A DNA stretch of 64,000 nt, taken from the NCBI RefSeq assembly GCF_015500095.1, contig NZ_CP062983.1:2232001-2296000 (forward strand), given 5' to 3'. The notes beneath the pieces were generated by a model. It was given only the letters and a program-made list of their open reading frames with translations, was not told the DNA's origin and did no database searches. The position numbers and the translations under genes were made by a program. This document shows, piece after piece, positions 1,135 to 16,600 of the stretch (its first letter is position 1; each line of letters starts with the position of its first letter). Source of the DNA: Phototrophicus methaneseepsis (GTDB lineage: Bacteria; Chloroflexota; Anaerolineae; Aggregatilineales; Phototrophicaceae).

Positions 1135-2490
1135 TTACGATGTCACACGTGGGTTGATGCGTAGCCCTAATCTGACGTAGGCGATTTCATCCTCCTCATT
1201 GCGGATGAAATCAAGGCGAATATCCTTGAATGGCCCTTCAATGACCACCATCTGATCGACACCGCAGAGTTGTAATGTTGCAGGCGGTGGCGGTGGTGGC
1301 GTGTCCTCGCTCGGTATGCCCCCATTTTTCATGGTGAGCTGCATGATGAGCTTATCATCTTCGTACTTCAGTTCGGTATCCATCGTCGGGCGGGAATAGG
1401 TGCCAAGATAAGGCTGTAATTCTTCCGGCGATGCCTGAATGGCTTCTGGTTCGGGTTCTTCAACGCCGAGGAAGTCCTTCATGACCCATTTTTCGACCTC
1501 GGAATTTAATTTACTGCCCTTATCCGCATTGGTCAGCACACCCATCACGAGGTTATGTTCCGGGAAGATCGTCAATTGGGCTTGCTGGCCCAGGGTAGAC
1601 CCGCCATGATCGACAACTTTTGTGCCGCCCACATCCCGCACAAACCACGATAGGCCAATTGCGCCGCTCTGGTCATTGATGGGGAACTGGGGCGTTTGCA
1701 TCATATCCAGGCTTTCTCGTTTGAGCAGGGGGGAACCATCGCCCAGGTGATATTGCCCGTAAGCCAGCAAATTCTTGATACTGCTGGCGATGCCGCCTGC
1801 CGGATTGGATGAGCGTGGGATCGGCCAGGGGCGCTGGACAATAGCGCCTTGCTCGTCATCCACACGATGCCCCATGACGAAGCGATAAGTCATGACTTCC
1901 TTGGGGAAGAAAAAGGTATGATCCAGGCCAAGCGGCTCAAATATGAGCTGCTTCATGGCTGTTTCGTAGACGAGGCCCGTCACGGCTTCAATCACCCGGC
2001 CTGCCGTACAAAAAGCCGAATTGTTGTATGAGAAGGTGAAATCAGGCGGTGCAAGCTGGTCCAACGTTGCCATCTGTTTGACGTATTCTTCCAGTGCGTT
2101 GTCGTTGTCGCCTGTATCCGTGAAGACATCGCCAATCCAGCCTGTGCTGTGTGTGATGAGATGCTTGATGGTTGCTTTCTCGGAGACGGCTTCGTCCTTG
2201 ACGCGAAAATCCGGCAGGTAGGTGCGAATAGGCGCGTTCAAGTCGAGCTTCCCATCTTCGACCAGGCGCATCATCGCTGTTGCCGTAAAGGTCTTGGTGA
2301 TCGAACCGATCTGGAACAAGGTATCTTCGTCGATTTCCAACGGGTTGATTGCGCTGGTGATGCCTGACCCATGGGTAAATGTCTCCCCGTCGATGGTGAT
2401 ACCGACGACGGCCCCCGGTACGCCGAGTTCTTCGCGCAGTGCATCGAATTTAGCGCATAGCTGTTCGAACTTCGTCTTGTTATCGCTCAT
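1135..2490 (-). CDS. serine hydrolase, beta-lactamase class C/PBP-like fold
   Basis: This 451-residue protein has the three active-site motifs of the class C beta-lactamase / DD-peptidase / esterase superfamily: SxxK at S63-ITK-66 (GSITKTF), YxN in FSYNNSAF near residue 150, and an HxG triad in VVDHGGST near residue 300. The C-terminal 100 residues form the lipocalin-like extension often found in such hydrolases (PYLGTYSRP motif), interrupted by a run of seven prolines (DTPPPPPPA). No signal peptide is visible, so it is probably cytoplasmic. Family members act as D-aminopeptidases, D-Ala-D-Ala carboxypeptidases, esterases or true beta-lactamases, and sequence alone does not choose. Its neighbours (another two such hydrolases, a racemase, peptide transport) favour a D-peptide role. 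An AGGGGG element precedes the ATG. Confidence 0.9.
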   Translation of the reverse strand: MSDNKTKFEQLCAKFDALREELGVPGAVVGITIDGETFTHGSGITSAINPLEIDEDTLFQIGSITKTFTATAMMRLVEDGKLDLNAPIRTYLPDFRVKDEAVSEKATIKHLITHSTGWIGDVFTDTGDNDNALEEYVKQMATLDQLAPPDFTFSYNNSAFCTAGRVIEAVTGLVYETAMKQLIFEPLGLDHTFFFPKEVMTYRFVMGHRVDDEQGAIVQRPWPIPRSSNPAGGIASSIKNLLAYGQYHLGDGSPLLKRESLDMMQTPQFPINDQSGAIGLSWFVRDVGGTKVVDHGGSTLGQQAQLTIFPEHNLVMGVLTNADKGSKLNSEVEKWVMKDFLGVEEPEPEAIQASPEELQPYLGTYSRPTMDTELKYEDDKLIMQLTMKNGGIPSEDTPPPPPPATLQLCGVDQMVVIEGPFKDIRLDFIRNEEDEIAYVRLGLRINPRVTS

Positions 2491-2522: not shown

Positions 2523-3437
2523 CTATTTAGGTTGGTATGTTTCCAGGACTAACTGACCAATCTTGCCCATAGCTGTTTCGACTTCAAAGACACGCTGATG
2601 TTGGGCTTCTGCCTGGTCCCAGATAGGGGCCTGATTCCACTCAACGAATTCCGTCAGGATGACGTGGTTATTATCATCGATATAGATAATGCCACTGTCA
2701 TTGCGGATACCCCCGATGGTGCCTGTCTTGTGTGCGACTTTGATTTGTGGGGGGAAGAAGCGTGTCATGCGCACATTGAACTGTTGTTTGAATAAGATGC
2801 CGAGCGCTGTTTCTAGCTCTTCGCCGCCGAATAACTCGCCCTGATAGATCATATGCAGCAAACTGTTCATATCCAGCGCGGTGCTGATGTCGTTATCCGG
2901 CGTCAGGCTGAAGGTGCGGCTGTCGCGCAGGATGTCATGGGTACTTGCCCAGGCCATGCGCTCTTCCATTGGCATCGCTTGCACCTCTGGCGGGAACATC
3001 TCGCCAATCAGGTCTTTGCAGTTCATCTTGATGTAGATATCGTTCAGGCCGAGTTCGTGCATGTAGGATTCAATAGCTTCTGGGCCGCCAAGAATGTCGA
3101 TGATCATATCGGTAGCGGTGTTATCGCTGATGATGATCATGAGCGTGAGCATATCCAGGAAGGTTGGCTCAAGGCCCCCTTCAAAGTAAGGCAGGATGCC
3201 GCTGCCAGGGCTTTTATCTTCTTCCTTGAGCGGGTAGCGCGTCCCAAGGCTGAGCTTGCCTTGGGAAACTTGCTTCATAGCGGTTGCCAGGATCGGAATT
3301 TTGAAGGTGCTCGCCATGGGGTAGGGCACATCGCCGTTCACATCTGTCTTTTCACCGGATTCAATGTGCCAGACGGCGATGCCTGCTTTGATGTCGGCTT
3401 CTTCTAGGATGGCTTCGATTTTTTCTTTCAAGCTCAT
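2523..3437 (-). CDS. serine hydrolase, class A beta-lactamase-like (COG2367 type)
   Basis: A 304-residue protein with the class A beta-lactamase fold motifs: SxxK at S43-TFK-46, SDN at 104-106 (IIISDNTATDM) and KTG in AHKTGTIGG near residue 235. It has no signal peptide and I cannot find the ExxLN omega-loop motif that supplies the general base in true class A beta-lactamases. It may therefore be a peptidase or esterase of this fold rather than a resistance enzyme. The start ATG overlaps the stop of the upstream racemase gene by four bases, so the two are almost surely translationally coupled and functionally linked. The N-terminus begins directly with the catalytic domain (SLKEKIEAILEEA), which fits a cytoplasmic protein. 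Confidence 0.85.
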   Translation of the reverse strand: MSLKEKIEAILEEADIKAGIAVWHIESGEKTDVNGDVPYPMASTFKIPILATAMKQVSQGKLSLGTRYPLKEEDKSPGSGILPYFEGGLEPTFLDMLTLMIIISDNTATDMIIDILGGPEAIESYMHELGLNDIYIKMNCKDLIGEMFPPEVQAMPMEERMAWASTHDILRDSRTFSLTPDNDISTALDMNSLLHMIYQGELFGGEELETALGILFKQQFNVRMTRFFPPQIKVAHKTGTIGGIRNDSGIIYIDDNNHVILTEFVEWNQAPIWDQAEAQHQRVFEVETAMGKIGQLVLETYQPK

Positions 3438-4600
3438 AGGGCCACGCCTTTCTCAACGTAGGGGTAAACATTCTTCCAGTGTTCTTTGGCTGCTTCCAAA
3501 CGATCAAGCTGGACTTCAACGCCGATGCCGTAACCATCTGGCACAGCCAGGGTGCTGTTTTCTCCCAGAACAAAGGGCTTTTCTGTGATGTCCGGGTCGA
3601 AGTAGCGGTCCGTTGCTGAAATATCGCACGGAAGCGTCACACCGGGTAGAGCCGCAAAGGCCACATTGGCCGCACGCCCAACGCCTGTTTCGAGCATGCC
3701 ACCGATCCACAGCGGCAGATTTTCTTCGACGCAGACGCGGTAAATGCGCAAACTCTCGCTGTAACCGCCTACACGCGCAGGCTTCAGGTTGAGGATATTG
3801 ATAGCGCCAATCTGGATCGCGACCAACAGATCATTCACGGTGTGGATGCTCTCATCAAGACAAACAGGTGTATCCAGCAGCGGCGTCAGTTTGCCGTGCT
3901 CATAGATGTCATAGTAGGCTAATGGCTGCTCAATCATGAGCAGGTTGTAATCATCTAGCTGCTTAAGGTGCTCGGCATCAGCCAGCGTATAGTCGCTGTT
4001 GGCATCAAGCATCATGGTGATGTCTGGCAGGGCTTCTCGTACGCCTTTTGCCAGCTCGACATCCCAACCCCGCTTGATCTTAAGCTTGATGCGCTGGTAG
4101 CCCTGGTCCAGGCGCTTACGGATGATTTGGAGTGTATCTTCAACCGTTGGCTGGATGCCGATGCTCACCCCGACTGTTGCCGCAGGGCGTGGCTCATGGC
4201 CTTCTGGTAGGAATGTTGCGAAGTAATCCGCCAGCCGCATATCGTTCATCTTGGCGCAGGCATCCCATACTGCGGCCTCAATACCGGCTTTGGTGTGATG
4301 GTTGCCACGCGAGGCGCGCAGCAGTGCCGGGACCTCAGTCGCTTTTTCGATGGTTTTACCAACGAGGCTGGGAATGAGGAAATTCAGCAGAATATGCTCA
4401 GCGGTCGCTGTTGTTTCCATCCCATAACCAGGGTAAGTGTCGACGGCGGCTTCGCCCCAGCCCGTTACACCTTCCTCCGTCACAACTTCTATCAGAACCG
4501 CTGTTTTGTTCGGCTCTACGCCGAAGCTGGTCCGCAGTGGCTCGACCAGGGGGAGTGCAACAGTATGGATGATCACATCTTTGATCGTTATCGGTTTCAC
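3434..4600 (-). CDS. enolase-superfamily racemase/synthase (OSBS/NSAR type, MenC-like)
   Basis: This 388-residue protein belongs to the muconate-lactonizing subgroup of the enolase superfamily, close to o-succinylbenzoate synthase / N-succinylamino-acid racemase. Visible features are the N-terminal capping domain (LVEPLRTSFG), the KxK motif at K172/K174 (RIKLKIKRGWD), metal ligands in MMLDAN, IEQPL and CLDESI, and the barrel lysine in LKPARVGG. The start is a GTG at 4600 preceded by GGAAGG at a seven-base gap. It is co-directional with a GNAT acyltransferase 12 bp upstream and overlaps a serine hydrolase downstream. No other menaquinone gene is nearby, so the N-acylamino-acid racemase activity known for promiscuous members of this family is more likely than a menaquinone role. 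That choice is inference. Confidence 0.85.
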   Translation of the reverse strand: MKPITIKDVIIHTVALPLVEPLRTSFGVEPNKTAVLIEVVTEEGVTGWGEAAVDTYPGYGMETTATAEHILLNFLIPSLVGKTIEKATEVPALLRASRGNHHTKAGIEAAVWDACAKMNDMRLADYFATFLPEGHEPRPAATVGVSIGIQPTVEDTLQIIRKRLDQGYQRIKLKIKRGWDVELAKGVREALPDITMMLDANSDYTLADAEHLKQLDDYNLLMIEQPLAYYDIYEHGKLTPLLDTPVCLDESIHTVNDLLVAIQIGAINILNLKPARVGGYSESLRIYRVCVEENLPLWIGGMLETGVGRAANVAFAALPGVTLPCDISATDRYFDPDITEKPFVLGENSTLAVPDGYGIGVEVQLDRLEAAKEHWKNVYPYVEKGVAL

Positions 4601-4612
4601 TGAATTACCTTC

Positions 4613-5431
4613 CTACGTTCGGTCTCTTTGGAAAACATACCAGCCGCGTCCGTCGCGCACGACGAAGTGATAGGCTATGTAACCTTCTTTGAGTGCATGT
4701 AACATGGCTTCGCGCACGGCAAGCTGCCATGAAATTGCGAGCGGTTTATTTGTTTGCTTGAGTTTTGCAATCTGATAGGGGATCTCGATGCAGTATGTGT
4801 CTCGCGTCAGAGGTGCCTGGGGGACGTGCTGGCTATCATCACCATTTTCACCCACGAGAAAAGCTTCAGCATCAAATTCGGTATCTAGTGGCGTAAATTC
4901 TGGGTTTTCTGCCAGGGCCTGCACATGAGGCTGGTTTAAATCCCAATAAGCCTCACAACGGTCACTCGCTAAGCCTACGTTGATGCTATCCGTCATTTCA
5001 CCATATAGGTTGACTTCATAACGCTCAACACGCACGCCTAACCGATTGAAGTTGAAGTTGGCGTTGCCGCGCTGCAACGGGTCAAACGTCCAACGGATGA
5101 CGTTATAGCCGTTCTCTAGGGCCCAACGTCGCTGTGCTTGCTTGAGCATATAGCCCACGCCGTGCCCCTGGTACGCTGGCTCAACACCTGCCATATGTGA
5201 CCATAGAGAGATGGCATCGCCGTTTTTAGCCGGGAACCCCAGACAAAAGCCGATCATACGACCATCGAGCTCCGCACCGACGACCACGCCCCCATTATGG
5301 CTGAAGGCATTCATGATCGAGGGTGATGTGGTGCCGGACGTCTCCATTTGCCAGATGCTGATCTGGAGCGCCAGCACTTTGTCGAAATCTTCCATTGAGT
5401 GCAAAATGCGTAACGAGATTGTGTTGCTCAT
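4613..5431 (-). CDS. GNAT-family N-acyltransferase (COG3375-like)
   Basis: A 272-residue protein with an N-terminal GNAT fold. The acyl-CoA binding loop is visible as QGHGVGYMLKQAQRRWALENGY around residue 95, followed by the characteristic stretch WTFDPLQRGNANFNFNRLGV that I associate with the COG3375 family, whose genes are commonly next to MenC-like genes. In Geobacillus a GNAT and an N-succinylamino-acid racemase act together to turn D-amino acids into L-amino acids through N-succinyl intermediates, and the present pairing has the same layout. Substrate is not determined by sequence. It ends 12 bp before the racemase start, and starts 8 bp after the stop of a serine hydrolase gene, so it sits inside an operon of at least five genes. 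Confidence 0.85.
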   Translation of the reverse strand: MSNTISLRILHSMEDFDKVLALQISIWQMETSGTTSPSIMNAFSHNGGVVVGAELDGRMIGFCLGFPAKNGDAISLWSHMAGVEPAYQGHGVGYMLKQAQRRWALENGYNVIRWTFDPLQRGNANFNFNRLGVRVERYEVNLYGEMTDSINVGLASDRCEAYWDLNQPHVQALAENPEFTPLDTEFDAEAFLVGENGDDSQHVPQAPLTRDTYCIEIPYQIAKLKQTNKPLAISWQLAVREAMLHALKEGYIAYHFVVRDGRGWYVFQRDRT

Positions 5432-5439
5432 GACGTCAA

Positions 5440-6936
5440 TCAGACTTCTTCTGGCTGGGCTTCCGGTTCTGCGGCTTCTTCTTTAACGGGAACGCGTGTG
5501 AAGACGATTGGCTTGACATTCGGTTCCATCTGGACGCGTACTTCCTCAATATCTCCCTTGATGCTGGAGATGAACGACGCTGGCGTCTGGTCGTATTCGG
5601 TGTCTTGCTGCATCATGAAAACATCATAGTGGAAGTGGTGCACGCTAAAGTCGAGATTGTTGTAGCTGGCAGCCAGACCATTTTCATCGCCCGTGACGGT
5701 GAGGACCCCATACCCTGGATGTTCATATTCACCCACATAAGCCGTCAGTTCATGGGAGGGTTGCGTATCTGGGTGGCGTGTTTCTTGGAGCTCCTGGTGG
5801 CCTTCTTTCATCTTGCCAATGGCTTTATCGGTGAACTCCATCAGGACGCCGCTCCAATCAATGGATTCTTTGCCTAACAGGCGATCAAAGATGTTGCAGC
5901 ACACCGCGATAGGGGCATGCTTACCGCCCAGGTTGGAGAGGCACACCGCGCCGATATTCTTCTGGGGCAGCATTGCAACCTGTGCGATAAAGCCATCAAT
6001 CGCGCCGCCATGATGGACCCATTTGGTCCCGCGATAGTTCTGGATGAACCAGCCCATACCATAGCTTGCCTGGCCGATTTCTGGGTGGGTATCCAGGAAG
6101 GGGAACATCATCGCTTTTGTGACGATGGGCATTTGCCGTGATTGCATTTCCGTGACGACATCTTCTGAAGCGATGCGTTCACCATTGAAGGTGCCCTTGT
6201 TCAGGTTCAGGCGCAGCCAATTTGCCATATCTGCCGCTGTGGAATTGATGGACCCGGCAGGGCCGATAGCGTCGATATTGCGGAATGGGATCTGCTTGAG
6301 GTCGCCATCGAAGGGCTTGCTGTGCGGGTAGGCATAATTTTCGCCTGCCTGTGTATCATCCACGGAGCAGTTGCTGCGCGTCATGCCGAGTGGTTCAAAA
6401 ATGCGCTCCGTAACGAATTCTTCCCATGTTTTGCCGCTAATCGCTTCGACCAAGACACCCGCTGTCATGAACATCAGGTTTTGGTACTGCATCCAACTGC
6501 GGAAGTCTTTACTCGGTTCGAGATACTTTAATTTGGTGAAGATTTCTTTGCGGCTGAGGGGGCTGTTGTACCACAGTAGGTCATGCCGGGGTAAGCCGCT
6601 GCGATGTGTGACGAGGTCCATGGCATTCATCCGCTCAGTGGCGAACTTATCCATCAGCTCGAAGTCCGGCATATACTGCCGCAAGGGCTTGTGCCAATCC
6701 AGCAGGCCATCATCCACCAGGATGCCCAGGCACATGGCTGTAAAGGCTTTGCTTGATGAACCAATTGCAAAGATGGTCTCCGGCGTGACGGGAGCTTTGG
6801 ACTCAAGTTCTGTATAGCCAAAGCCTTTTTGATAAATGATCTCGTCATCCTGGACGACTGCGACCGCCATACCGGGGACGCTCCACTGCTCCATGATATC
6901 TGCCATGAAGTCGTCAAAACCATCAAAAACGCTCAT
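5440..6936 (-). CDS. serine hydrolase, beta-lactamase class C-like
   Basis: A 498-residue member of the class C beta-lactamase/PBP-like hydrolases with SxxK at S60-SSK-63 (GSSSKAF), YxN as YQN in MQYQNLMF, and HxG in VHHGGAIDGF. I place the start at the ATG at 6936 because GGAGAAG stands six bases upstream; an in-frame TTG at 6951 would overlap that ribosome binding site. After the catalytic domain comes a beta-rich C-terminal domain (YVGEYEHPGYGVLTV) and an acidic Ala/Glu/Pro tail. No signal peptide is seen. It is the first gene of the run with the GNAT protein, racemase and two further serine hydrolases, 166-180 bp downstream of the peptide-binding protein gene. Confidence 0.9.
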   Translation of the reverse strand: MSVFDGFDDFMADIMEQWSVPGMAVAVVQDDEIIYQKGFGYTELESKAPVTPETIFAIGSSSKAFTAMCLGILVDDGLLDWHKPLRQYMPDFELMDKFATERMNAMDLVTHRSGLPRHDLLWYNSPLSRKEIFTKLKYLEPSKDFRSWMQYQNLMFMTAGVLVEAISGKTWEEFVTERIFEPLGMTRSNCSVDDTQAGENYAYPHSKPFDGDLKQIPFRNIDAIGPAGSINSTAADMANWLRLNLNKGTFNGERIASEDVVTEMQSRQMPIVTKAMMFPFLDTHPEIGQASYGMGWFIQNYRGTKWVHHGGAIDGFIAQVAMLPQKNIGAVCLSNLGGKHAPIAVCCNIFDRLLGKESIDWSGVLMEFTDKAIGKMKEGHQELQETRHPDTQPSHELTAYVGEYEHPGYGVLTVTGDENGLAASYNNLDFSVHHFHYDVFMMQQDTEYDQTPASFISSIKGDIEEVRVQMEPNVKPIVFTRVPVKEEAAEPEAQPEEV

Positions 6937-7117: not shown

Positions 7118-8731
7118 TTAATCCTCGCCCAATGTCCATTCTTGGATGGGGTTATAACCCCAACTGGTTATCTCGTAGTTGCCAAGCTGCGGGCTGTAGG
7201 CAACGCGCCCGACCTGGGTATACATGAAGTCCATTGGTACATCTTCGCTGATGAGTTCCTGAATACGGTCATAGGTCGGCTTACGATCTTCTACGGCGCA
7301 GCCCAGGCTCGGCAGGTCCGCAATGAGGCTGTCGACTTCTTCATTGATGTAGGAGTTAAAGTTGGTGCCCATATCGTTGGCAACCGGGTACAGGAACTTC
7401 AGCAGTTCGTCAGGCGTGGGGCTGTCCCAACTAATGCCAATGATGAAAGCATCGAAGTTTTGTGCGCTCAGGCGGTCAGCGATCATGGCTCCCTGTTCGC
7501 CCGTCGTCAACGTGACATCAACGCCCAGATCACCCCAGTAATCTGCAATCAGCGTTGCAACATCGTCGTAACCGGCCAGGTAAATCAGTTCCAGGGCGAG
7601 TGGCTCACCCTCTTTATCGCGGATGCCATCGCCATCGCTGTCTGTCCAGCCAGCTTCTTCTAGTAAAGCGATAGCGCCTTCCATATCGTAGGTGTAGGGC
7701 TCCAGGTCTTCGTCAATATACTGCGGCAGTACGGGAGCAACCGGCCCATAGAGCGGCAGCGCACCGTCACCCGCGAGGAAAAGACCATCTTCGTGGTCCC
7801 AACCCATCACCAGGGCTTCGCGGACACGGACGTCACCCAGAATAGGATGCGGAGCCTGCTCGACTAAGTTGCCATCTTCATCCAATGCGGACAGCGGATT
7901 ATCGGGGTCCGTCAGGTTGAACATATTCATGATCCAACCATTGATCGGATAGGTTTCGAGCACGACGTCCGGATTGCTTTCCAGCAGCAGGGCCTGATCT
8001 GGCGTGATGGTCGTCACGAGATCGACCTGACCGCTTTCCAATGCCTGGAAGCGAACTTCTGGATCTGGCATGACTTGTACGACCAATTGGTCAATATTGG
8101 GCGTGCCACCGTAGTAGGTTTCATTCGCTGCAAAGCGCATGTATTCATCTGTTGAGCGCTCGACAAACACATAGGGCCCACCAGAGACTGTTGGCTGTGT
8201 GTTGTAGGAATTGGTGGAGAAATCACTGTAATCATCTGCATAGACGTGGGATGGCAAAATGCTGAAGCTGACTTCTGTAAACAGGTTACATGTCGGTGCC
8301 GTGAAGACCATCTCAAAGGTCTTGTCATCAATGATATTCAGCGTTTCGAAGTTACTAATCGCGCGGAAGCCCTCAACGCTGTCTTCGAACAGTGCATTCA
8401 CCGTAAAAGCAACATCTTCTGAGGTAATCGGTGTGCCATCGCTCCACACAGCATCGGGATTGATGCTAAAGGTGTAGGTCAGCCCATCTTCTGAGATTTC
8501 CCAGGTTGCGAGGTCCGGTTCTGCTTCACCAGTCACAAGGTTGTTGCGGCTGAGGCGGGGCATAACAAGACCTTGAAGTAAAGAATCGACAGTTTCAACT
8601 TGTAGAATGGAGTTGAATGTCGAACCATCTGCTGGGAAAGCCCAGATCAATGTGTCGTCTTCCTGTGCTGTGATGGGCAAGGCAGCCATCACCAACAGCC
8701 CGATTAATAGTAATAAGCTGTATCGTTTCAT
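7118..8731 (-). CDS. peptide ABC transporter substrate-binding protein (SBP_bac_5)
   Basis: A 537-residue exported binding protein of the DppA/OppA family (SBP_bac_5). The N-terminus has a clear Sec signal peptide (MKRYSLLLLIGLLVMAALPITAQ) with a likely cleavage after Ala22-Gln; no lipobox cysteine is present. Family hallmarks are SVDSLLQGLVMPRL-like start, DGLTYTFSI / AVWSDGTPITSEDV near residue 90 (the classic WSDG.P.TA.DV signature) and ALLEEAGWTDSDGDGIRDKEG near residue 360. It delivers oligopeptides (or related solutes) to the DppB/DppC-type permease encoded by the divergent operon beyond the M81 gene. It is transcribed away from the M81 gene from a shared 184-base control region. Confidence 0.92.
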   Translation of the reverse strand: MKRYSLLLLIGLLVMAALPITAQEDDTLIWAFPADGSTFNSILQVETVDSLLQGLVMPRLSRNNLVTGEAEPDLATWEISEDGLTYTFSINPDAVWSDGTPITSEDVAFTVNALFEDSVEGFRAISNFETLNIIDDKTFEMVFTAPTCNLFTEVSFSILPSHVYADDYSDFSTNSYNTQPTVSGGPYVFVERSTDEYMRFAANETYYGGTPNIDQLVVQVMPDPEVRFQALESGQVDLVTTITPDQALLLESNPDVVLETYPINGWIMNMFNLTDPDNPLSALDEDGNLVEQAPHPILGDVRVREALVMGWDHEDGLFLAGDGALPLYGPVAPVLPQYIDEDLEPYTYDMEGAIALLEEAGWTDSDGDGIRDKEGEPLALELIYLAGYDDVATLIADYWGDLGVDVTLTTGEQGAMIADRLSAQNFDAFIIGISWDSPTPDELLKFLYPVANDMGTNFNSYINEEVDSLIADLPSLGCAVEDRKPTYDRIQELISEDVPMDFMYTQVGRVAYSPQLGNYEITSWGYNPIQEWTLGED

Positions 8732-8825
8732 GATGAGTTGCTCCTATATCTACGAAGGCGAGGGTTTGGGAAATGCGGTGGTCGAGTGACCGATGCCATA
8801 TTCGCCAGATGATAGCAACGGGAGA

Positions 8826-8860
8826 TGCAAATTGCAAAATTTGGTGCAATTTTTTTTGCA
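8826..8860. promoter_or_regulatory. candidate operator with four TGCAA/TTGCA half-sites
   Basis: Four half-sites occur in 35 bases: a perfect 5-1-5 palindrome TGCAA-A-TTGCA (8826-8836) and a second pair TGCAA-6-TTGCA (8845-8860). The last half-site overlaps the -35 element of the promoter read toward the M81 gene. The position between divergent binding-protein and peptidase/permease operons, with an RpiR-type regulator as the last gene of the rightward operon, makes this a natural operator for that regulator. The link to the regulator is inference. Confidence 0.5.
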
Positions 8861-8884
8861 GTCTGGTTCTTGTGTCGTTATAAT
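8856..8884 (+). promoter_or_regulatory. promoter of M81-permease-regulator operon
   Basis: A consensus -10 box TATAAT (8879-8884) is preceded at 17 bases by TTGCAG (8856-8861), a 3/6 match to the -35 consensus. Transcription would start near 8891, leaving a 25-base leader before the ATG at 8916. The weak -35 and the overlap with operator half-sites suggest a regulated promoter. Confidence 0.5.
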
Positions 8885-8915
8885 GCGCCGCAATTCATCA
8901 TCAGCGAGGTTCGCA

Positions 8916-10385
8916 ATGAAGGTATTCTTCTCTGGATTGGTGACCGAAACCAATACGTTTGTGCCGTTCCCGACAGGTCTAAAAGACTTTCATACCATCA
9001 GGGCAGAAGATGTGCAGCAGGGGCAGACTTTTACAGATTGGTCCGCTGTGATGCAGGTGTTTACAGAGGTTGCCCAGGCACGCGGCTGGGATTATGCGTT
9101 TGGGCTTCATGCCACGGCTGAACCCGCTGGTACAACAGTACAATCAACTTATGAATCACTCCGCGACGAAATTCTATCGCGCCTAGAAACAGCCATGCCC
9201 GTGGATGCTGTCCTGCTAGACTTGCATGGGGCGATGGTTGCTCATGGGTACGATGATTGCGAAGAAGACATCGTCAGTCATGTGCGCAAGAGAGTTGGCC
9301 CGGATGTGATCATTGGTGTGGAATTGGATTTGCACTGCCATGTCTCTCAGAAATTGGTCGATACGGCGGATGTCATCTGCATCTACAAAGAGTACCCTCA
9401 TACGGACATCCTCGACCGCGCCCGCGATCTCATTGATTTGGTAGGGGATGCCGTTGAAGGTAAAATCAAGCCGACAATGGCACTTTACGACTGCAAAATG
9501 GTCGGAACGTACCTGACTCCTTATGAACCTATGCGGGGCTTTGTCGATGAGATGTTCGCTGCTGAAGGCAAAGATGGTGTCCTGTCGTTATCCCTGGCGC
9601 ATTGCTTCCCATGGGGAGATGTGCCGCACTTAGGCACGAAGATGCTTGCTATTACAGATAACAATCCTGAGCAGGCTGCTGAGGTCGCAGCTTCTTTTGG
9701 CCGTAAGTTCTTTTCGCTGCGGCATGAGGTCAACCAGAAGCAAATGAGCTTATCCGATGCCCTGGACACGGCGCTTGCTCATGAGAGCGGCCCCGTAGTC
9801 ATTGCGGATGCGACAGATAATCCCGGTGGTGGCGCGCCGAGCGATTCCACAATGGCGCTGCGCGAGCTGCTGGCTCGTGGTGTGACGAATGCAGCCATTG
9901 CGATGATGTGGGACCCTGTCATCGTGAACATTGTGATGTCAACGGAAGTCGGGGCGAAGCTGGATGTGCGCCTGGGCGGTAAATTAGGTCCTATGTCCGG
10001 CGACCCGCTCGACCTGGAAGTGGAAGTCGTGGGCATCATCCCACAGATGCTACAGGAGTTCCCACAACCGGGCAGTGCACCGCTTGCTTATCCTTGCGGG
10101 GATGCTGTTGCATTACGTTGTAAGGGGATCGACATTATCGTGAACAGCCTGCGCGGGCAGGTCTTTAGCCCCCATGTGTTTACGAATTTTGGCATCGACA
10201 TCAGCCAGAAGCAGGTTCTCATCGTGAAATCGACACAGCATTTTTATGCTGCGTTCGCGCCGGTTGCCTCCAAAATTCTCTATATGAATGCGGGTGGGGC
10301 GCTGCAAACAGATTATCCGAACATCCCGTACCAGTACGATCATCGTCATCAGTATCCCTGGGTGGATGACCCGTTCGCCCTCTAA
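8916..10385 (+). CDS. M81 family metallopeptidase (MlrC-like)
   Basis: A 489-residue protein of the M81 / microcystinase-C family: the N-terminal domain begins MKVFFSGLVTETNTFVP and carries DLHGAMVAHGYDD and ELDLHCHVS, where the conserved Asp/His residues are expected to bind zinc; the C-terminal domain contains DNPGGGAPSDST, the family's hallmark. MlrC finishes degradation of linear microcystin peptides; relatives are thought to be small-peptide hydrolases. I chose the ATG at 8916 because GAGG lies seven bases upstream and family homology begins exactly there; the open frame continues upstream to 8793 but crosses the promoter. It is the first gene of an operon with peptide permeases (22 bp gap), which supports intracellular hydrolysis of imported peptides. 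Confidence 0.88.
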   Translation: MKVFFSGLVTETNTFVPFPTGLKDFHTIRAEDVQQGQTFTDWSAVMQVFTEVAQARGWDYAFGLHATAEPAGTTVQSTYESLRDEILSRLETAMPVDAVLLDLHGAMVAHGYDDCEEDIVSHVRKRVGPDVIIGVELDLHCHVSQKLVDTADVICIYKEYPHTDILDRARDLIDLVGDAVEGKIKPTMALYDCKMVGTYLTPYEPMRGFVDEMFAAEGKDGVLSLSLAHCFPWGDVPHLGTKMLAITDNNPEQAAEVAASFGRKFFSLRHEVNQKQMSLSDALDTALAHESGPVVIADATDNPGGGAPSDSTMALRELLARGVTNAAIAMMWDPVIVNIVMSTEVGAKLDVRLGGKLGPMSGDPLDLEVEVVGIIPQMLQEFPQPGSAPLAYPCGDAVALRCKGIDIIVNSLRGQVFSPHVFTNFGIDISQKQVLIVKSTQHFYAAFAPVASKILYMNAGGALQTDYPNIPYQYDHRHQYPWVDDPFAL

Positions 10386-10407: not shown

Positions 10408-11433
10408 ATGACAACATACCTGATTCGCCGTGTTATACAAGCAATCCCGACGATCATCGGGATTACGCTCATTTCCTTTATATTGATCATGCTTGCACCG
10501 GGTGATCCTCTGACACGCTTTGCCCTGAACCCGGAAGCCTCGCCAGAATCTATGGAGCGTTTGCGTCGCCAGATGGGCCTTGATAAGCCTATTCTGGAAC
10601 AGTACCTCTATTGGATGATTGGCAACGACTGGACCACAATTGATGTAGATGGTGATGGCGTCGGCGATATACAGGGGACGCGACAGGGCTTGCTGCGGGG
10701 CGATATGGGGCAGTCTTTCCAGCATAGACGGCCCGTCCTTGAGCTTATCTTAGAGCGCATCCCCGCCACATTGCAGTTGACACTGCCACCGCTGCTGATC
10801 GGCTATGGACTGGGGATTGTGTTGGGCACCTTGGCCGCGGCAAACAAAGGTTCCTTGCTGGACCAGGCTGTGCGTATTCTCTCTGTTTTGGGGACGGCAT
10901 TGCCTAACTTCTGGCTGGGGCTGATTTTGATCATCCTCTTCAGCGTCAAGTTACAGGTGCTGCCTATTGGCGGCATGCGCGACCTGACGCGAACAGATGG
11001 CTCTGTCGATGTGATGGATACCCTTGTGCATATGATCCTACCGGTATCTGTGCTGGCCCTGGGGATTATCGCCAGTGTCACGCGTTATATGCGCGCTTCT
11101 GTGCTGGAAGTCATCGAGCAGGATTACGTCCGTACGGCACGTTCAAAGGGCCTTTCTGGGCGGCGCATCTTTAATGTGCATGTGATGCGCAATGCACTGC
11201 TGCCAATTGCGACCTTATTTGGCCCTGGCCTGGCCGCTTTGTTGAGTGGTGCAGTCATCATTGAGCAAGTCTTTAGCTGGCCGGGTATGGGGCGGCTGAC
11301 GATTACAGCTATCTTCCAACGTGATTTCCCCCTCATTATGGGGTCCGTCCTGATCAGTGCCATTCTGTATGTCATCGGCTTGATAATCTCCGATGTGCTT
11401 TACGCCCTTCTTGATCCCCGCATTCGGTTTTGA
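10408..11433 (+). CDS. peptide ABC transporter permease, DppB/OppB type
   Basis: A 341-residue integral membrane permease. The first membrane segment lies directly after the start (YLIRRVIQAIPTIIGITLIS), followed by the family motif APGDPLTRFALNPEASPE, an external loop, and a five-helix core with the EAA-type signature (RTARSKGLSGRRIFNVHVMRNALLP near residue 245). The start ATG at 10408 matches the usual beginning of the family; GAGG is 11 bases upstream. An unusual insertion in the large external loop reads IDVDGDGVGDIQG, a DxDxDG loop resembling EF-hand/dockerin calcium sites. It pairs with the next gene and the divergent binding protein. No ATPase gene follows, so ATP-binding partners must come from elsewhere. 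Confidence 0.92.
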   Translation: MTTYLIRRVIQAIPTIIGITLISFILIMLAPGDPLTRFALNPEASPESMERLRRQMGLDKPILEQYLYWMIGNDWTTIDVDGDGVGDIQGTRQGLLRGDMGQSFQHRRPVLELILERIPATLQLTLPPLLIGYGLGIVLGTLAAANKGSLLDQAVRILSVLGTALPNFWLGLILIILFSVKLQVLPIGGMRDLTRTDGSVDVMDTLVHMILPVSVLALGIIASVTRYMRASVLEVIEQDYVRTARSKGLSGRRIFNVHVMRNALLPIATLFGPGLAALLSGAVIIEQVFSWPGMGRLTITAIFQRDFPLIMGSVLISAILYVIGLIISDVLYALLDPRIRF

Positions 11434-12441: not shown

Positions 12442-13341
12442 ATGACAGGGAAAGCTTCTAAAGATGATGTGATTCAGTGGATACGCCAGCAGCATGAGTC
12501 ACTCAGCCCTAGCCAGCGCAAAGTTACAGAATTTTTATTGCAAGGTGGTATAGACGTTCTGCATTATCCCATTGCCAAAATTGCGAGCGAGATCGGCGTT
12601 AACGCCTCAACCGTCGTGCGTACAGCGCAATCACTAGGCTACAATGGCTTCCCGGAATTGCAATCGGAACTCAGACGTTATTTTTTGCGGCAGGCGCGTC
12701 TGTCGCAGCGGTTACAAATTGGTTCCAAACAGCTCATTGATGATTTAAAAGATGAACCTGACCAGGGTCGTCATATTCTGACGACTGTTTTACGCGATGA
12801 AATGCAAAACTTGCTCGATTTACCCCAGTATGTTCCCCTCGCTGTGTTCGATAAAGCTGTTGATATGCTGGATGATGCTAACCACGTCTTCATTATAGGC
12901 TTAGGCGCATCTTTCCCACTCGCTTTGAATTTTGGCGTTTACCTGCGCTATGTCAGGCCGAATACGACCGTCCTCACACCGGGGATCGATCCTATTCCTT
13001 CCCAACTCACCCCACTGACCTCTGGCGATCTTGTCTTTTCAATCTGTTTTGCACGCTACACGCGCGAAACGCTGACAACGATGGAATATGGTCATCGTAA
13101 GGGTGCCCAGGTCATCACGATCACCGATAGCGACCTTTCCCCCGCGGCGAAACGTGCTGATTTATCCCTGATCGTACCCTATAGACTGCGCCTGTATGGC
13201 AACATGATCGCACCTTTTGCGCTGATGGATGGATTATTAGGCGCGCTCTCTCTCCGCTATCCTGAAGCGACCCGCCAACGTCTGGAAAGCCTGGAAGAGC
13301 TGTATGAGACTTTCAACCTCCTGACAACTGGCGATGATTAG
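12442..13341 (+). CDS. MurR/RpiR family transcriptional regulator
   Basis: A 299-residue regulator with an N-terminal RpiR helix-turn-helix domain (residues about 10-85, HYPIAKIASEIGVNASTVVRTAQ being the reading helix region) and a C-terminal SIS sugar-isomerase domain (about 125-270; FIIGLGASFPLALNF and DLVFSICFARYTRETL). SIS domains of this family sense phosphosugars, including muropeptide sugars in MurR. The gene begins at an ATG with GGGGTGA just upstream, and ends the M81-permease operon. Its position suggests it controls this operon and perhaps the divergent binding-protein and hydrolase genes; a cell-wall-derived ligand would fit the surrounding enzymes. Ligand and targets are inferred. 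Confidence 0.88.
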   Translation: MTGKASKDDVIQWIRQQHESLSPSQRKVTEFLLQGGIDVLHYPIAKIASEIGVNASTVVRTAQSLGYNGFPELQSELRRYFLRQARLSQRLQIGSKQLIDDLKDEPDQGRHILTTVLRDEMQNLLDLPQYVPLAVFDKAVDMLDDANHVFIIGLGASFPLALNFGVYLRYVRPNTTVLTPGIDPIPSQLTPLTSGDLVFSICFARYTRETLTTMEYGHRKGAQVITITDSDLSPAAKRADLSLIVPYRLRLYGNMIAPFALMDGLLGALSLRYPEATRQRLESLEELYETFNLLTTGDD

Positions 13342-13667: not shown

Positions 13668-16600
13668 ATGCATAAACGAAGCATGGTGATTTCTGCATTA
13701 ATTGCAGTGGTCATGGCTTTTGTAACGACTGGTGTTGTTATGGCGGCACCAGCGGCAACAGTCACCATTGGTGGCGGTGGTGACATCTTCATTGGTACCT
13801 CAAGTATTGAGTTATCGGCGACATTTGATAATACCGCTGCAGCTGGCTCTGCGAATATTGGGTATGGGCCCTTTATAGACATCTATTTCCCTGTTAATGG
13901 GGCTGATGGTGCTGCAAATACCAGCTTGCCATTAGATGGCATTGATTATATTGCTGATAGTGCCACGTACCTGGGCATAAGCGTTACAGAAGTTATCCAG
14001 GTCTTCCCGGATAGTCCATTAGGGGAAAATGGCTGTGGCCCAACGCAGTCATGGGTTGAACATCCCTATGCTGTCGAGACAAATTTCGACCCTGTTACAG
14101 TTTGCGGTATACCAGGGGATAAGCTGGTCACATTCCAGCTTCCATTTGGCTCCTTCACACCGGAGCAACCCCCTGCAACGGTTGAATTCCAGGCGAGCCT
14201 GCATGACTATGCGGACCTTGCACAGCCTCTGACACTGCGGGCACAAGGTGGCTTCCAATTTGGTAACGATCCCCTTGATAATCCCTGCTGCGATCCGAGC
14301 ATCCCAACCACGCGGCCCTATGATGCGACGACTTTCCCCAATACGGGGACCATTACGCCGACATTGCTGGAAATTGAAAAAGAATATAATGGCCCTGAAG
14401 ACGAAACAGCGACCGGGCCTAACTATTCGCGCAGTTACACTGTCACTGTGACGGCCGCACCAGATCAAACGATTGAAGATCTGGATGTTTTTGATTATCT
14501 GGATGACAACGTCGTGATAACGGGCGTGAATGCACCCGGTTCCTCGTCGATCACCATCGGCGGCGTGGCGGCTGTTTTCCCCATTGGGCCGCTCACCAAT
14601 AACGGTACCACGAACGAACTGATTGTGAATTACGCCAGCATGCAAGATACGGTGTCGTTTACGATCTCGTTCTATGTGCCGCTGCGAGATGCAGCGGGTA
14701 ACCCGGTTGTCTCGTCCTCAACAGGTTCAGATGGCACCACGGAAAACCGGGCCTTTGCTTTAGGCGATTGGGACCCGTTGGACCCACGCGACGCAGGCGC
14801 GACGGATAATGCTTTAGCCGGGAATGCTTCTTGCCCTGGTTGTCCGCCACTTGTTACGCATGAAGATTCACCTATGGTGATCCAGAAAACCGTGACTAAC
14901 CTCACGGATAGTGCTAACACGCCAGGTGATGTGCTGGAATACACGCTCGATATTCAGTTATCGGACTTTTTTGCCCTGGATGATGTGGAAATTTTCGATG
15001 TGATTTCCGATGGTCAGCGAATAACCGGACCACCACAAATCATATTCTTCCAACATGGGACGCCGTCCAATAGAGCAATTGACGCTGCATATTATGAAAT
15101 CCGCGAATATTTTACAGGCGGTGCGGATAGCCTGCCTGATCCAGATGTCACAGCTATTGCGGGGGATACGGTCCTCTATATTGATTTGAGTGGCGAAGTT
15201 GAAGATAGCACGTCATTCACAGAACTGTTAGGTGGCTGTGTGCCAGCTGGTGGCACAGGTGGCGGGGACCCAGATTGTAGCCCTAACTTAGGCGCGACAT
15301 CGGCCACCATCAGGTATCAGACGACTATCCAGGATGCCTTCACAGATCAATTCCCATCAAATGATGCCAGTGTTGATGAAGGCGATACCCTGATGAACAC
15401 GGTAGAGATCCGGCCTGGTGTTGTGCTGGATACGGCAACACTCGCTCCGACAGGTGGGAGTTACGACGCAGGCGATAACAGCGGTGCCGAGGTTGAGATC
15501 GTCACAGGCACCCTGGAAAAAACAATCTACGGGATTCGTGAACCAGCTAGCGGAAATGTGAACCTTAGCCCTGGCTCCTCACCTCAGATCCGCCCAGGGG
15601 ATGAAATCATTTTCCGGCTGCGATACACGATGCCTTCAACGGACTTTGAAAACTTCATCCTTTCCGATTATTTACCACTGCCCGTCATGGATGCAAATGA
15701 AATCGTGGCATTTGATGATGTCATTTCTGATGGTGGCACAAGCGTTGGCACAGGTATCCCGGCTGCTGGGCGCGCGATGTGGGGCCCAACACCGGGACAA
15801 ACGAACTTTGCCGCGCACCGGGCAACCCTGGGGACGCCGCTAGAAAATGGAATGACCGTCCCCACGTTGATCGTACCGGGCGGTACCATTCCTATATCCT
15901 GTGACGGCGGTACGATTTCCGCAGAAGAAAATTCGGTCGCGTTCTGCTTTGGCGACTTTGACGATCCGACCAATACAGATAGCATCGTCGATATTCTGTT
16001 CTCCGTGACGGTGAGCAACCAATCTTTTGCGGATGGCCTGTTCTTAACGAACTTCGCCCAGAGCGGTACAGGCTCTACAAATGCCGGTACGTCATCCAAC
16101 GATGAGATCATCGGCTTTGAACTGCGTGAGCCGATCTTGCAGATCAAGAAAGGCATCATTGATTCCACCAATCCCAATGAGGACTTTAGCAGCCAGACCA
16201 CGCCTTCTGGGACGACTTTTGCTGATGCGGGTACGGGTGGGGCTCCATTCACGGGCTCGATTGAAACCAGCGAAGGTGGTGGTAGCGGCAACGTTGATGG
16301 TGCCCTGGATGCAGACGCCAGCGGCCTGGATGCGAATGACACGGTTCGTTATGCTGTCACGATCCAGAATACAGGCGGCAGTGGGGCCTTCGATATCAAG
16401 CTAACCGATTCGTTGCCAACTGGCCTCGTGTGTAATCCTGCAAATTTGAACCTATCCGTCACGCTGGGCGATGGAACCTCTGTTGCCTATACGACGCCTT
16501 CTGGCAATGACTGCGACTTCTTCATTAACTTTGATGGCGATACGGACGATGGTATCGAACTGATTGATCCCAGCGCCGGGACGCCAGTTTGCCAACATCC

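What the first reader, a model, noticed from the sequence alone, without database searches (positions are those of the whole stretch)
2523..6936. GNAT + MenC-like racemase + three serine hydrolases: a possible D-amino-acid/D-peptide salvage module
A GNAT acyltransferase (4613-5431) and an OSBS/NSAR-type racemase (3434-4600) are adjacent and co-transcribed with beta-lactamase-fold serine hydrolases on both sides, the racemase and hydrolase sharing four bases. In Geobacillus a GNAT succinyltransferase, NSAR and an L-desuccinylase turn D- into L-amino acids. Here the desuccinylase would have to be another enzyme (a serine hydrolase or the nearby M81 peptidase). With the peptide importer and the RpiR/MurR-type regulator, the cluster looks like a pathway for D-residue peptides, perhaps wall-derived. 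This combination is not one I know as described.
Basis: partly seen in the sequence, partly recalled or inferred. Interest (0 to 1): 0.62.

Follow-up and report, generated by a model that had tools for sequence, protein, structure and literature searches.

The report
D-peptide import-and-salvage gene cluster
A run of genes in an uncultured Chloroflexota-type bacterium appears to import short peptides, cut them with penicillin-binding-type hydrolases, and flip D-amino acids to the L form through an N-acyl intermediate; the same mix of genes recurs in Bacillus relatives, which makes a shared job likely, but no step has been tested.

Summary
On the minus strand a peptide-binding protein, an S12 hydrolase, a GNAT, an NSAR/OSBS-type racemase, a class-A-like hydrolase (PF13354), a second S12 and an S9 peptidase follow closely; a D-aminoacylase-like amidohydrolase, outside the window, ends the run. 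M81, OppB, OppC and RpiR diverge from it. Comparison supports a functional module. Of 30 loci with the PF13354 gene in this order, 26 have the racemase, 27 M81 and 22 RpiR; of 30 other racemase loci, 2 have M81 and RpiR. Bacillaceae operons carry the same enzyme families in other orders, with racemases from a separate branch, which suggests repeated assembly. GNAT plus NSAR plus an M20 deacylase is a known D-to-L route (recalled); its extension with peptide import and PBP-fold hydrolases is a variant for which I found no description. Against it: the closest relative lacks the GNAT there, the amidohydrolase has lost metal ligands, and deacylase and substrate are unknown.

The parts
7118..8731 (-). 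Peptide-binding protein of an Opp/Dpp-type ABC importer (SBP_bac_5); N-terminus reads as a signal peptide
   Evidence: PF00496 246.7 bits; best NCBIfam Opp4A 182.9 bits, below its cut-off of 650
5440..6936 (-). S12 beta-lactamase-fold serine hydrolase with DUF3471 (S12a), no signal peptide by inspection; SSSK, YQN, HGG motifs
   Evidence: PF00144 219.6 bits, PF11954 61.4 bits; best PDB match 2qmi, 125.7 bits; motifs by alignment
4613..5431 (-). GNAT acyltransferase, 272 aa, C-terminal extension
   Evidence: PF00583 33.2 bits; AlphaFold model pLDDT 89.9, GNAT fold over residues 2-172, best Z 15.7; WTxDPxxxxNA motif in 13 of 13 sequences aligned, own included
3434..4600 (-). NSAR/OSBS-type racemase of the enolase superfamily
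   Evidence: TIGR01928 308.3 bits, cut-off 200.65; N-acylamino acid racemases 2zc8, 1sja and others at E down to 2e-87
2523..3437 (-). PF13354 class-A-beta-lactamase/PBP-A-fold serine hydrolase (called ClsA in the call notes), no signal peptide by inspection; STFK, SDN, KTG
   Evidence: PF13354 199.9 bits; bla_class_A 131.8 bits, below cut-off 200; best sequence match PBP-A 2j7v; model pLDDT 94.5, Z 33-37 over the 50 entries shown, PBP-A 34.5
1135..2490 (-). Second S12 serine hydrolase (S12b), no signal peptide by inspection; SITK, YNN, HGG
   Evidence: PF00144 203.8 bits; PDB 7spn (IS11) 419.1 bits
1..1114 (-). N-terminal part of an S9 (prolyl oligopeptidase family) peptidase that continues outside the window; a D-aminoacylase-like amidohydrolase follows 5 bases after it, outside the window
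   Evidence: L008 11153-13114: PF00326 164.4 bits, PD40; L008 9528-11147: D-aminoacylase 1m7j E 1.2e-77
8732..8918 (.). Divergent intergenic region with promoter-like sites on both strands and clustered TGCAA/TTGCA half-sites (possible RpiR operator, weak)
   Evidence: Promoter-like sites at 8855-8884 + and 8837-8809 - (over the scanned region no more sites than in shuffles, 13 against 13.3); 5 half-sites against 1.19 expected, 4 of 300 shuffles as many; not enriched in most of the more distant clusters
8919..10385 (+). M81 (MlrC-like) metallopeptidase
   Evidence: PF07364 279.7 bits, PF07171 169.9 bits; NF041767 MlrC 344 bits, below cut-off 999
10408..11433 (+). OppB-type permease
   Evidence: PF00528 146.5 bits
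11430..12353 (+). OppC-type permease; no OppD/OppF ATPase gene found in the cluster
   Evidence: PF00528 106.2 bits; OppD and OppF no hit in the own 30 kb
12442..13341 (+). RpiR-family regulator (HTH_6 + SIS)
   Evidence: PF01418 58.5 and PF01380 63.4 bits

Best explanation
The cluster is a catabolic regulon for peptides that contain D-residues. (1) The binding protein and OppBC, with ATPases encoded elsewhere, import short peptides (inferred). (2) Enzymes without signal peptides (two S12 hydrolases, the PF13354 hydrolase, the S9 peptidase, M81) cut them in the cytoplasm; PBP-fold enzymes are apt for D-residues (inferred from family). (3) Freed D-amino acids are N-acylated, probably succinylated or acetylated, by the GNAT, or by a paralogue elsewhere in genomes whose cluster lacks it (inferred). 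(4) The NSAR-type racemase interconverts the N-acyl-D and N-acyl-L forms (family activity; residues present). (5) A deacylase releases the free amino acid. In some relatives this is plausibly the M20 enzyme in the operon; here it would be an M20 enzyme elsewhere in the genome, with the D-aminoacylase-like protein acting on N-acyl-D forms as a side or alternative exit. (6) RpiR controls the divergent units (inferred). Shown: gene content, conservation, catalytic residues of the racemase, no recognisable MenD or MqnC. All chemistry and transport is inferred.
For: Racemase is a full NSAR/OSBS-type protein with the KxK, D, E, D, K set conserved in 7 racemases aligned from three phyla. MenD and MqnC are not recognisable in this genome; in the order 44 of 115 genomes with the racemase have no MenD over cut-off, though many of these genomes are incomplete. 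PF13354 loci in the order: racemase in 26 of 30, M81 27, RpiR 22, OppA 27, OppB 26, GNAT 19. Contrast: 30 other racemase loci, M81 2, RpiR 2 (the PF13354 count of 0 there follows from how I chose them). Bacillaceae: 6 of 193 genomes have the PF13354 gene; around it racemase 5 of 6, S12 6, RpiR 5, OppB/C/D/F 5, GNAT 4, S9 3, M81 2 (three of the six are near-identical strains). Examples: OppBCDF-NSAR-GNAT-S9-S12-PF13354-RpiR in L218, and L221 with an M20 deacylase after the GNAT. L222 holds an M19 dipeptidase in the same run. Tree: the order's cluster racemases lie inside the housekeeping racemase clade, the Bacillota ones on another branch; the label needs at least two changes.
Against: The nearest relative keeps 11 of 12 genes but has no GNAT there. 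In L050/L051 the GNAT sits with S12 hydrolases and OppA but no racemase, and in many clusters of one genus the GNAT lies several kb from the racemase beyond RpiR, so GNAT and racemase are separable. The D-aminoacylase-like protein lacks the HxH pair and the Cys ligand of D-aminoacylase and, if active on N-acyl-D forms, would work against a D-to-L flow. No M20 deacylase and no OppD/F in the cluster itself. S9, S12b and the amidohydrolase together are seen only in the own genome and the nearest relative among the 30 loci. One full-length PF13354 locus (G115) has no racemase, M81 or RpiR. Four PF13354 relatives of about 40% identity in the order have no such neighbours (L090-L093); of 55 more distant loci printed, 2 have a racemase hit. 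At E 1e-50 the PF13354 protein was found in 1 of 400 genomes drawn across the phylum, the window's own. There is no substrate evidence.
Confidence: 0.55

Rival explanations
1. Mlr-like degradation of nonribosomal or other heterochiral natural-product peptides: importer, S12 and M81 peptidases dismantle such peptides, as MlrB (PBP-type serine peptidase) and MlrC (M81-like) do for microcystin, and the racemase step uses the D-residues released. A narrower form of the best explanation.
For: S12, M81 and peptide transporter together; own M81 keeps the D-x-H-x21-H spacing of the zinc ligands reported for MlrC (D167, H169, H191; PMC4810221 passages; sequence). By recall some of the isolate names are sponge metagenome bins; no call shows it.
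Against: M81 scores 344 bits against a MlrC cut-off of 999; no MlrA-type linearising enzyme among the 12 own cluster genes; M81 in 2 of 6 Bacillaceae loci only.
Confidence: 0.2
2. Salvage of peptidoglycan stem peptides (L-Ala-D-Glu-containing), with RpiR as a MurR-like sensor.
For: PF13354 enzyme closest in sequence to PBP-A, a DD-peptidase by recall; RpiR/SIS regulator; M19 dipeptidase in L222.
Against: None of the 12 own cluster genes is a muramic-acid, amino-sugar, LD-carboxypeptidase or Ala-Glu epimerase gene by family match; flanks of relatives were not searched for these families. The RpiR protein scores far below the MurR model (31.9 bits against 408).
Confidence: 0.15
3. The flow runs from L to D: GNAT acylates an L-amino acid, the racemase inverts it, the D-aminoacylase-like enzyme frees the D-amino acid for wall or signalling use.
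For: D-aminoacylase-like gene at the end of the run and in other clusters (5 of 30 in the order; L198 beside the racemase; L103).
Against: Peptide importer and five peptidases/hydrolases point to catabolism; altered metal site; M20 deacylase in L221 and L171.
Confidence: 0.08
4. Ordinary peptide utilisation plus an OSBS for menaquinone that sits there by chance.
For: TIGR01928 is named o-succinylbenzoate synthase; 71 of 154 genomes have both racemase and MenD.
Against: No MenD over cut-off (61.8 bits against 244.2) and no MqnC match in this genome; a second racemase copy of the same family; recurrent linkage in two groups of bacteria.
Confidence: 0.02

Closest known systems
Geobacillus kaustophilus GNAT-NSAR-L-desuccinylase pathway (Sakai et al. 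2006; seen here only as a reference title in PMC8762209; content recalled)
   Same: Adjacent GNAT and NSAR-type racemase; D-to-L conversion through N-acyl forms; M20 deacylase in some relatives (L221, L171)
   Different: Here together with a peptide importer, five hydrolases of the S12, PF13354, S9 and M81 families and an RpiR regulator; no M20 gene in the cluster itself
mlr microcystin degradation cluster (MlrB, MlrC: PMC4810221 passages, PMC11070527 abstract; MlrD transporter: PMC9505733 passages)
   Same: A PBP-type SxxK serine peptidase and a metallopeptidase (MlrC, M81-like) that act on a peptide, with a putative transporter
   Different: No racemase in the passages read (0 occurrences of the word in PMC9505733); no MlrA-type enzyme among the own 12 genes; M81 well below the MlrC cut-off
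D-aminoacylase / N-acyl-D-amino acid deacylase (1m7j, 3gip)
   Same: Sequence similarity over most of the length; two later His kept and the Asp kept in the alignment (one search places a gap there); residue numbers His220, His250, Asp366, Cys96 recalled
   Different: HxH replaced by LSW and the Cys lost; a Glu nearby may replace it (inference)
SAR202 enolase-superfamily expansion and 'chiral complexity' hypothesis (PMC6946804 passages)
   Same: Chloroflexota racemases proposed to unlock chiral organic matter
   Different: That work concerns mainly mandelate-racemase-like paralogues, not an NSAR peptide cluster, in the passages read

Membership tests
NSAR/OSBS subfamily (N-succinylamino acid racemase type) | Scores above a curated family cut-off and aligns nearly full length with characterised NSARs | tested here: met
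   TIGR01928 308.3 bits against 200.65; 2zc8 and 1sja, E down to 2e-87
NSAR/OSBS subfamily (N-succinylamino acid racemase type) | KxK base, D-E-D metal ligands, second Lys, and Arg equivalent to AmyNSAR R266 (roles recalled) | tested here: met
   K172, K174, D199, E224, D249, K273, R276 invariant in 5 sequences; also in the 7 sequences
NSAR/OSBS subfamily (N-succinylamino acid racemase type) | Racemisation of N-acylamino acids | not testable with these tools
   needs an assay
MenC in a menaquinone pathway | MenD (or the MqnC route) encoded in the same genome | tested here: not met
   MenD best 61.8 bits against 244.2; MqnC no match; genome 95.7% complete; other Men/Mqn genes not searched
Geobacillus-type GNAT-NSAR-desuccinylase pathway | GNAT next to NSAR | tested here: met
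   same pair in many relatives
Geobacillus-type GNAT-NSAR-desuccinylase pathway | M20 L-desuccinylase in the same operon | tested here: not met
   No M20 hit in the own cluster; present in L221 and L171; two TIGR01891 members over cut-off elsewhere in the genome
Geobacillus-type GNAT-NSAR-desuccinylase pathway | GNAT is a succinyltransferase for D-amino acids | not testable with these tools
   fold only
D-aminoacylase (N-acyl-D-amino acid deacylase) | HxH and Cys metal ligands (roles recalled) | tested here: not met
   LSW in place of HTH, no Cys; the altered motif in 7 of 7 rows, own included
Class A beta-lactamase | SxxK, SDN, KTG motifs and fold | tested here: met
Class A beta-lactamase | Curated family cut-off and ExxxN omega-loop motif (motif recalled) | tested here: not met
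   131.8 bits against 200; no ExxxN by eye between SDN and the helix that follows the loop (sequence)
MlrC (microcystinase C) | NCBIfam MlrC cut-off | tested here: not met
   344 bits against 999
MlrC (microcystinase C) | Zinc ligands D, H, H with reported spacing | tested here: met
   ELDLH then H 22 residues on; ligands from PMC4810221

The most novel reading that the evidence does not exclude
A previously undescribed heterochiral-peptide catabolic regulon, put together more than once in different phyla, in which peptide import and PBP-fold cytoplasmic peptidases feed D-amino acids into an N-acylation/racemisation/deacylation route, and in which a family of PF13354 'class A beta-lactamase-like' proteins serves as dedicated D-peptidases rather than in resistance or wall building.
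Probability: 0.38. Interest if true: 0.66.

Novelty: new variant of a known kind. Interest (0 to 1): 0.5.

Why it matters
D-amino acids and D-peptides are a poorly understood food source for bacteria (the SAR202 paper, passages read, says that information on D-amino acid use by marine microbes is limited). A recurring, assayable gene set would give concrete candidate enzymes, would offer a role for GNAT-NSAR pairs that are now named as menaquinone genes, and would give a job to beta-lactamase-like proteins that may be mistaken for resistance genes.

Tried and rejected
Menaquinone role: tested with MenD and MqnC and disfavoured. M81 or a serine hydrolase as the L-desuccinylase: no evidence found; M20 enzymes in relatives are better candidates. 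RpiR operator: TGCAA half-sites are enriched in the own region and in L066, L058, L086 and L096, but not in most others (42 seen, 20.4 expected in 22 regions; those five hold about two thirds of the excess), and the spaced palindrome is not rare in shuffles (3 seen, mean 1.42, 15 of 100 shuffles as many), so this stays a weak lead. Promoter and terminator scans gave no more sites than shuffles (13 against 13.3 and 14 against 13.4). GNAT fold search: generic GNAT domains, only residues 2-172 covered, so no substrate inference. PF13354 relatives farther away: of the 55 loci L131-L185 printed, racemase hits were seen in 2 (L132, L171); loci L106-L125 were annotated in that call but not printed.

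Literature: searches (held open-access library only) gave no description of this combination in their listings; the three NSAR papers looked up by id are not held, so absence from print is not shown.

Rows dropped and limits of the counts: five of the 35 genomes with a PF13354 match were left out (G131, G002, G003, G035 at about 40% identity, G111 at 31%); the first four were read and lack the neighbours, the fifth was not read. Of the four loci without a racemase, three (G039, G051, G053) are on contigs of 4-10 kb and one (G115) is a full 19.5 kb; G107 and G104 are also on short contigs. The hits are tblastn hits anywhere in the locus, not necessarily adjacent genes. The 30 contrast loci are 27 from this order (own second copy and 26 chosen from the places) and L198-L200 from two Bacillota genomes; they were chosen among racemase places not already fetched for the PF13354 gene, so their PF13354 count of 0 is by construction. 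Of the six Bacillaceae loci, L218 and L219 have identical racemases and L220 starts its PF13354 and RpiR proteins with the same residues, so there are about four independent cases.


Full report
Observation. On the minus strand, in order of transcription: SBP_bac_5 peptide-binding protein (7118-8731), S12 hydrolase with DUF3471 (5440-6936), GNAT (4613-5431), NSAR/OSBS racemase (3434-4600), PF13354 class-A-like hydrolase (2523-3437, sharing four bases with the racemase), S12 hydrolase (1135-2490). Fetching the DNA beyond the window start showed that an S9 peptidase (starting at window base 1114) and a 539-aa D-aminoacylase-like amidohydrolase continue the run with gaps of 20 and 5 bases, followed after 499 bases by an ammonium transporter gene. 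Divergent from the binding protein are M81, OppB, OppC and an RpiR regulator. N-termini read by eye show a signal peptide only on the binding protein, so the hydrolases look cytoplasmic.

The racemase. It scores 308 bits with TIGR01928 (cut-off 200.65), and its best solved relatives are N-acylamino acid racemases. Catalytic residues are conserved. The family name says o-succinylbenzoate synthase, but this genome (5.63 Mb, one contig, 95.7% complete) has no MenD over cut-off (61.8 bits against 244.2) and no MqnC match, and has a second racemase of the same family at C1:4.05 Mb. Across 154 genomes of the order, many incomplete, 71 have racemase and MenD, 44 the racemase only, 4 MenD only and 35 neither (lists, counted). 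MenB, MenE and other Mqn genes were not searched.

Two kinds of racemase locus. The second copy in this genome sits as GNAT paralogue-racemase-P5C reductase. Of 30 racemase loci other than those fetched for the PF13354 gene, 21 have a GNAT paralogue in the locus, 17 the P5C reductase, and 2 have M81 and RpiR; these two (L103, L198) are cluster-like in other respects. None has the PF13354 gene, but that follows from how they were chosen. Around the PF13354 gene in the order (30 loci, own included) the racemase is present in 26, M81 in 27, RpiR in 22, OppA in 27, OppB in 26, OppC in 23, GNAT in 19, the amidohydrolase in 5, the first S12 in 4 and S9 in 2. Of the four without a racemase, three lie on contigs of 4-10 kb and one, G115, is a real miss. 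The larger own arrangement with S9, both S12 and the amidohydrolase is seen among these only in the own genome and its nearest relative; the core is racemase, PF13354, M81, Opp and RpiR.

The GNAT is the exception: a 133-base gap separates S12 and racemase. In two genomes of another family, S12-GNAT-S12-binding protein occurs without a racemase (L050, L051). In many clusters of one genus the GNAT lies several kb from the racemase, beyond RpiR. The GNAT is thus a loose member, which weakens a strict GNAT-to-racemase reading of this locus; paralogues elsewhere could serve.

Other phyla. A scan of named genomes for the PF13354 protein found a Bacillaceae genome with racemase-OppABC-PF13354-OppD-OppF-RpiR-S12-GNAT (L132) and a Gemmatimonadaceae contig with GNAT-racemase-PF13354-M20 (L171). 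In 193 genomes of that Bacillaceae family, 6 have the PF13354 gene. Around it: OppBCDF-racemase-GNAT-S9-S12-PF13354-RpiR (L218, L219), OppBCDF-racemase-GNAT-M20-S12-PF13354-RpiR-amidohydrolase in two ORFs (L221), racemase-S12-OppABCDF-M19 dipeptidase-PF13354-M81-S9 (L222), M81-S12-PF13354-RpiR on a 7.3 kb contig (L220). L218, L219 and L220 are near-identical strains, so there are about four independent Bacillaceae cases. An Alicyclobacillus genome has RpiR, M81, amidohydrolase and racemase together (L198). Identities of the enzymes, permeases and regulator to the window proteins are 21-47%, and gene orders differ. In a tree of 55 racemase rows (52 different) the order's cluster racemases lie within the housekeeping clade, and the Bacillota ones on another well-supported branch shared with the Gemmatimonadaceae row; the 'peptide cluster' label needs at least two changes (midpoint root, some long branches, 17 rows in no group). 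The simplest reading is that the ensemble was put together more than once, which argues for a shared function. Limits: of 55 more distant PF13354 loci printed (Aminicenantes, Acidobacteria, Proteobacteria and others) only L132 and L171 have a racemase hit, four relatives of about 40% identity in the order have no such neighbours, and at E 1e-50 the own PF13354 form was found in 1 of 400 genomes drawn from the phylum.

The hydrolases. Both S12 proteins have SxxK, YxN and HGG motifs. The second is close to IS11 (7spn, 419 bits); the first matches 2qmi best. The PF13354 protein has STFK, SDN and KTG, is closest in sequence to PBP-A, falls below the class A beta-lactamase cut-off, lacks an ExxxN motif in the omega-loop region by eye, and its model (pLDDT 94.5) matches class A enzymes and PBP-A alike (Z 33-37). 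So it is a PBP/class-A-fold hydrolase, and a beta-lactamase role is not indicated. M81 keeps the zinc-ligand spacing reported for MlrC but is well below the MlrC cut-off.

The deacylase question. The amidohydrolase at the end of the run aligns with D-aminoacylase over most of its length, but HxH is LSW and the Cys is missing. The two later His are kept; the catalytic Asp is kept in the alignment, while one search places a gap there. The altered motif is the same in 7 of 7 rows, own included. It may be an active one-metal enzyme with a Glu ligand (inference). M20 deacylases, the kind used in the known D-to-L pathway by recall, are in the operon in L221 and L171, and the own genome has two TIGR01891 members over cut-off elsewhere.

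Mechanism and verdict. The best-supported account is import of D-residue peptides, cytoplasmic cleavage, N-acylation, racemisation and deacylation, under RpiR control. Gene content, conservation, the lack of recognisable MenD and MqnC and the recurrence in two groups are shown; every reaction is inferred. GNAT-NSAR-M20 is known from Geobacillus (Sakai 2006, seen only as a title; content recalled), and MlrB and MlrC act on a peptide in the mlr system. What may be new is the union of the two with peptide import and a dedicated PF13354 hydrolase. No account of it appeared in nine searches of a held open-access library, which is no proof of absence.

Noticed in passing
13668-26444 (+): One open reading frame of 4258 aa with 12 DUF11 stretches and an LPATG motif followed by a hydrophobic stretch at the C-terminus, a giant surface-type protein next to RpiR.
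   Followed up: partly
L008 9528-11147 (genome C1:2229528-2231147): D-aminoacylase-like subfamily in which the HxH pair and the Cys ligand are replaced by a motif conserved in 7 of 7 rows; possibly an uncharacterised one-metal amidohydrolase subfamily.
   Followed up: partly
L046 8832-11734 (genome C1:4053831-4056733): Second racemase locus: GNAT paralogue-racemase-P5C reductase, also in other genomes of the order (P5C reductase in 17 of 30 loci). Its function is unclear; it hints at a link with proline metabolism.
   Followed up: partly
L050 and L051: Binding protein-S12-GNAT-S12 without a racemase in another family of the order; the GNAT-S12 link exists without racemisation.
   Followed up: no
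L054 7584-8576 and the same place in other clusters: A PLP-dependent PALP-family gene between RpiR and the GNAT in many clusters of one genus (cluster c0, 15 loci; PF00291); could be an ammonia lyase acting on freed amino acids.
   Followed up: partly
L008 7619-9028: Ammonium transporter gene downstream of the amidohydrolase, same strand, 499 bases away.
   Followed up: no
8732-8918: Clustered TGCAA/TTGCA half-sites between the divergent units, kept in the nearest relative, weak or absent in most other clusters.
   Followed up: partly
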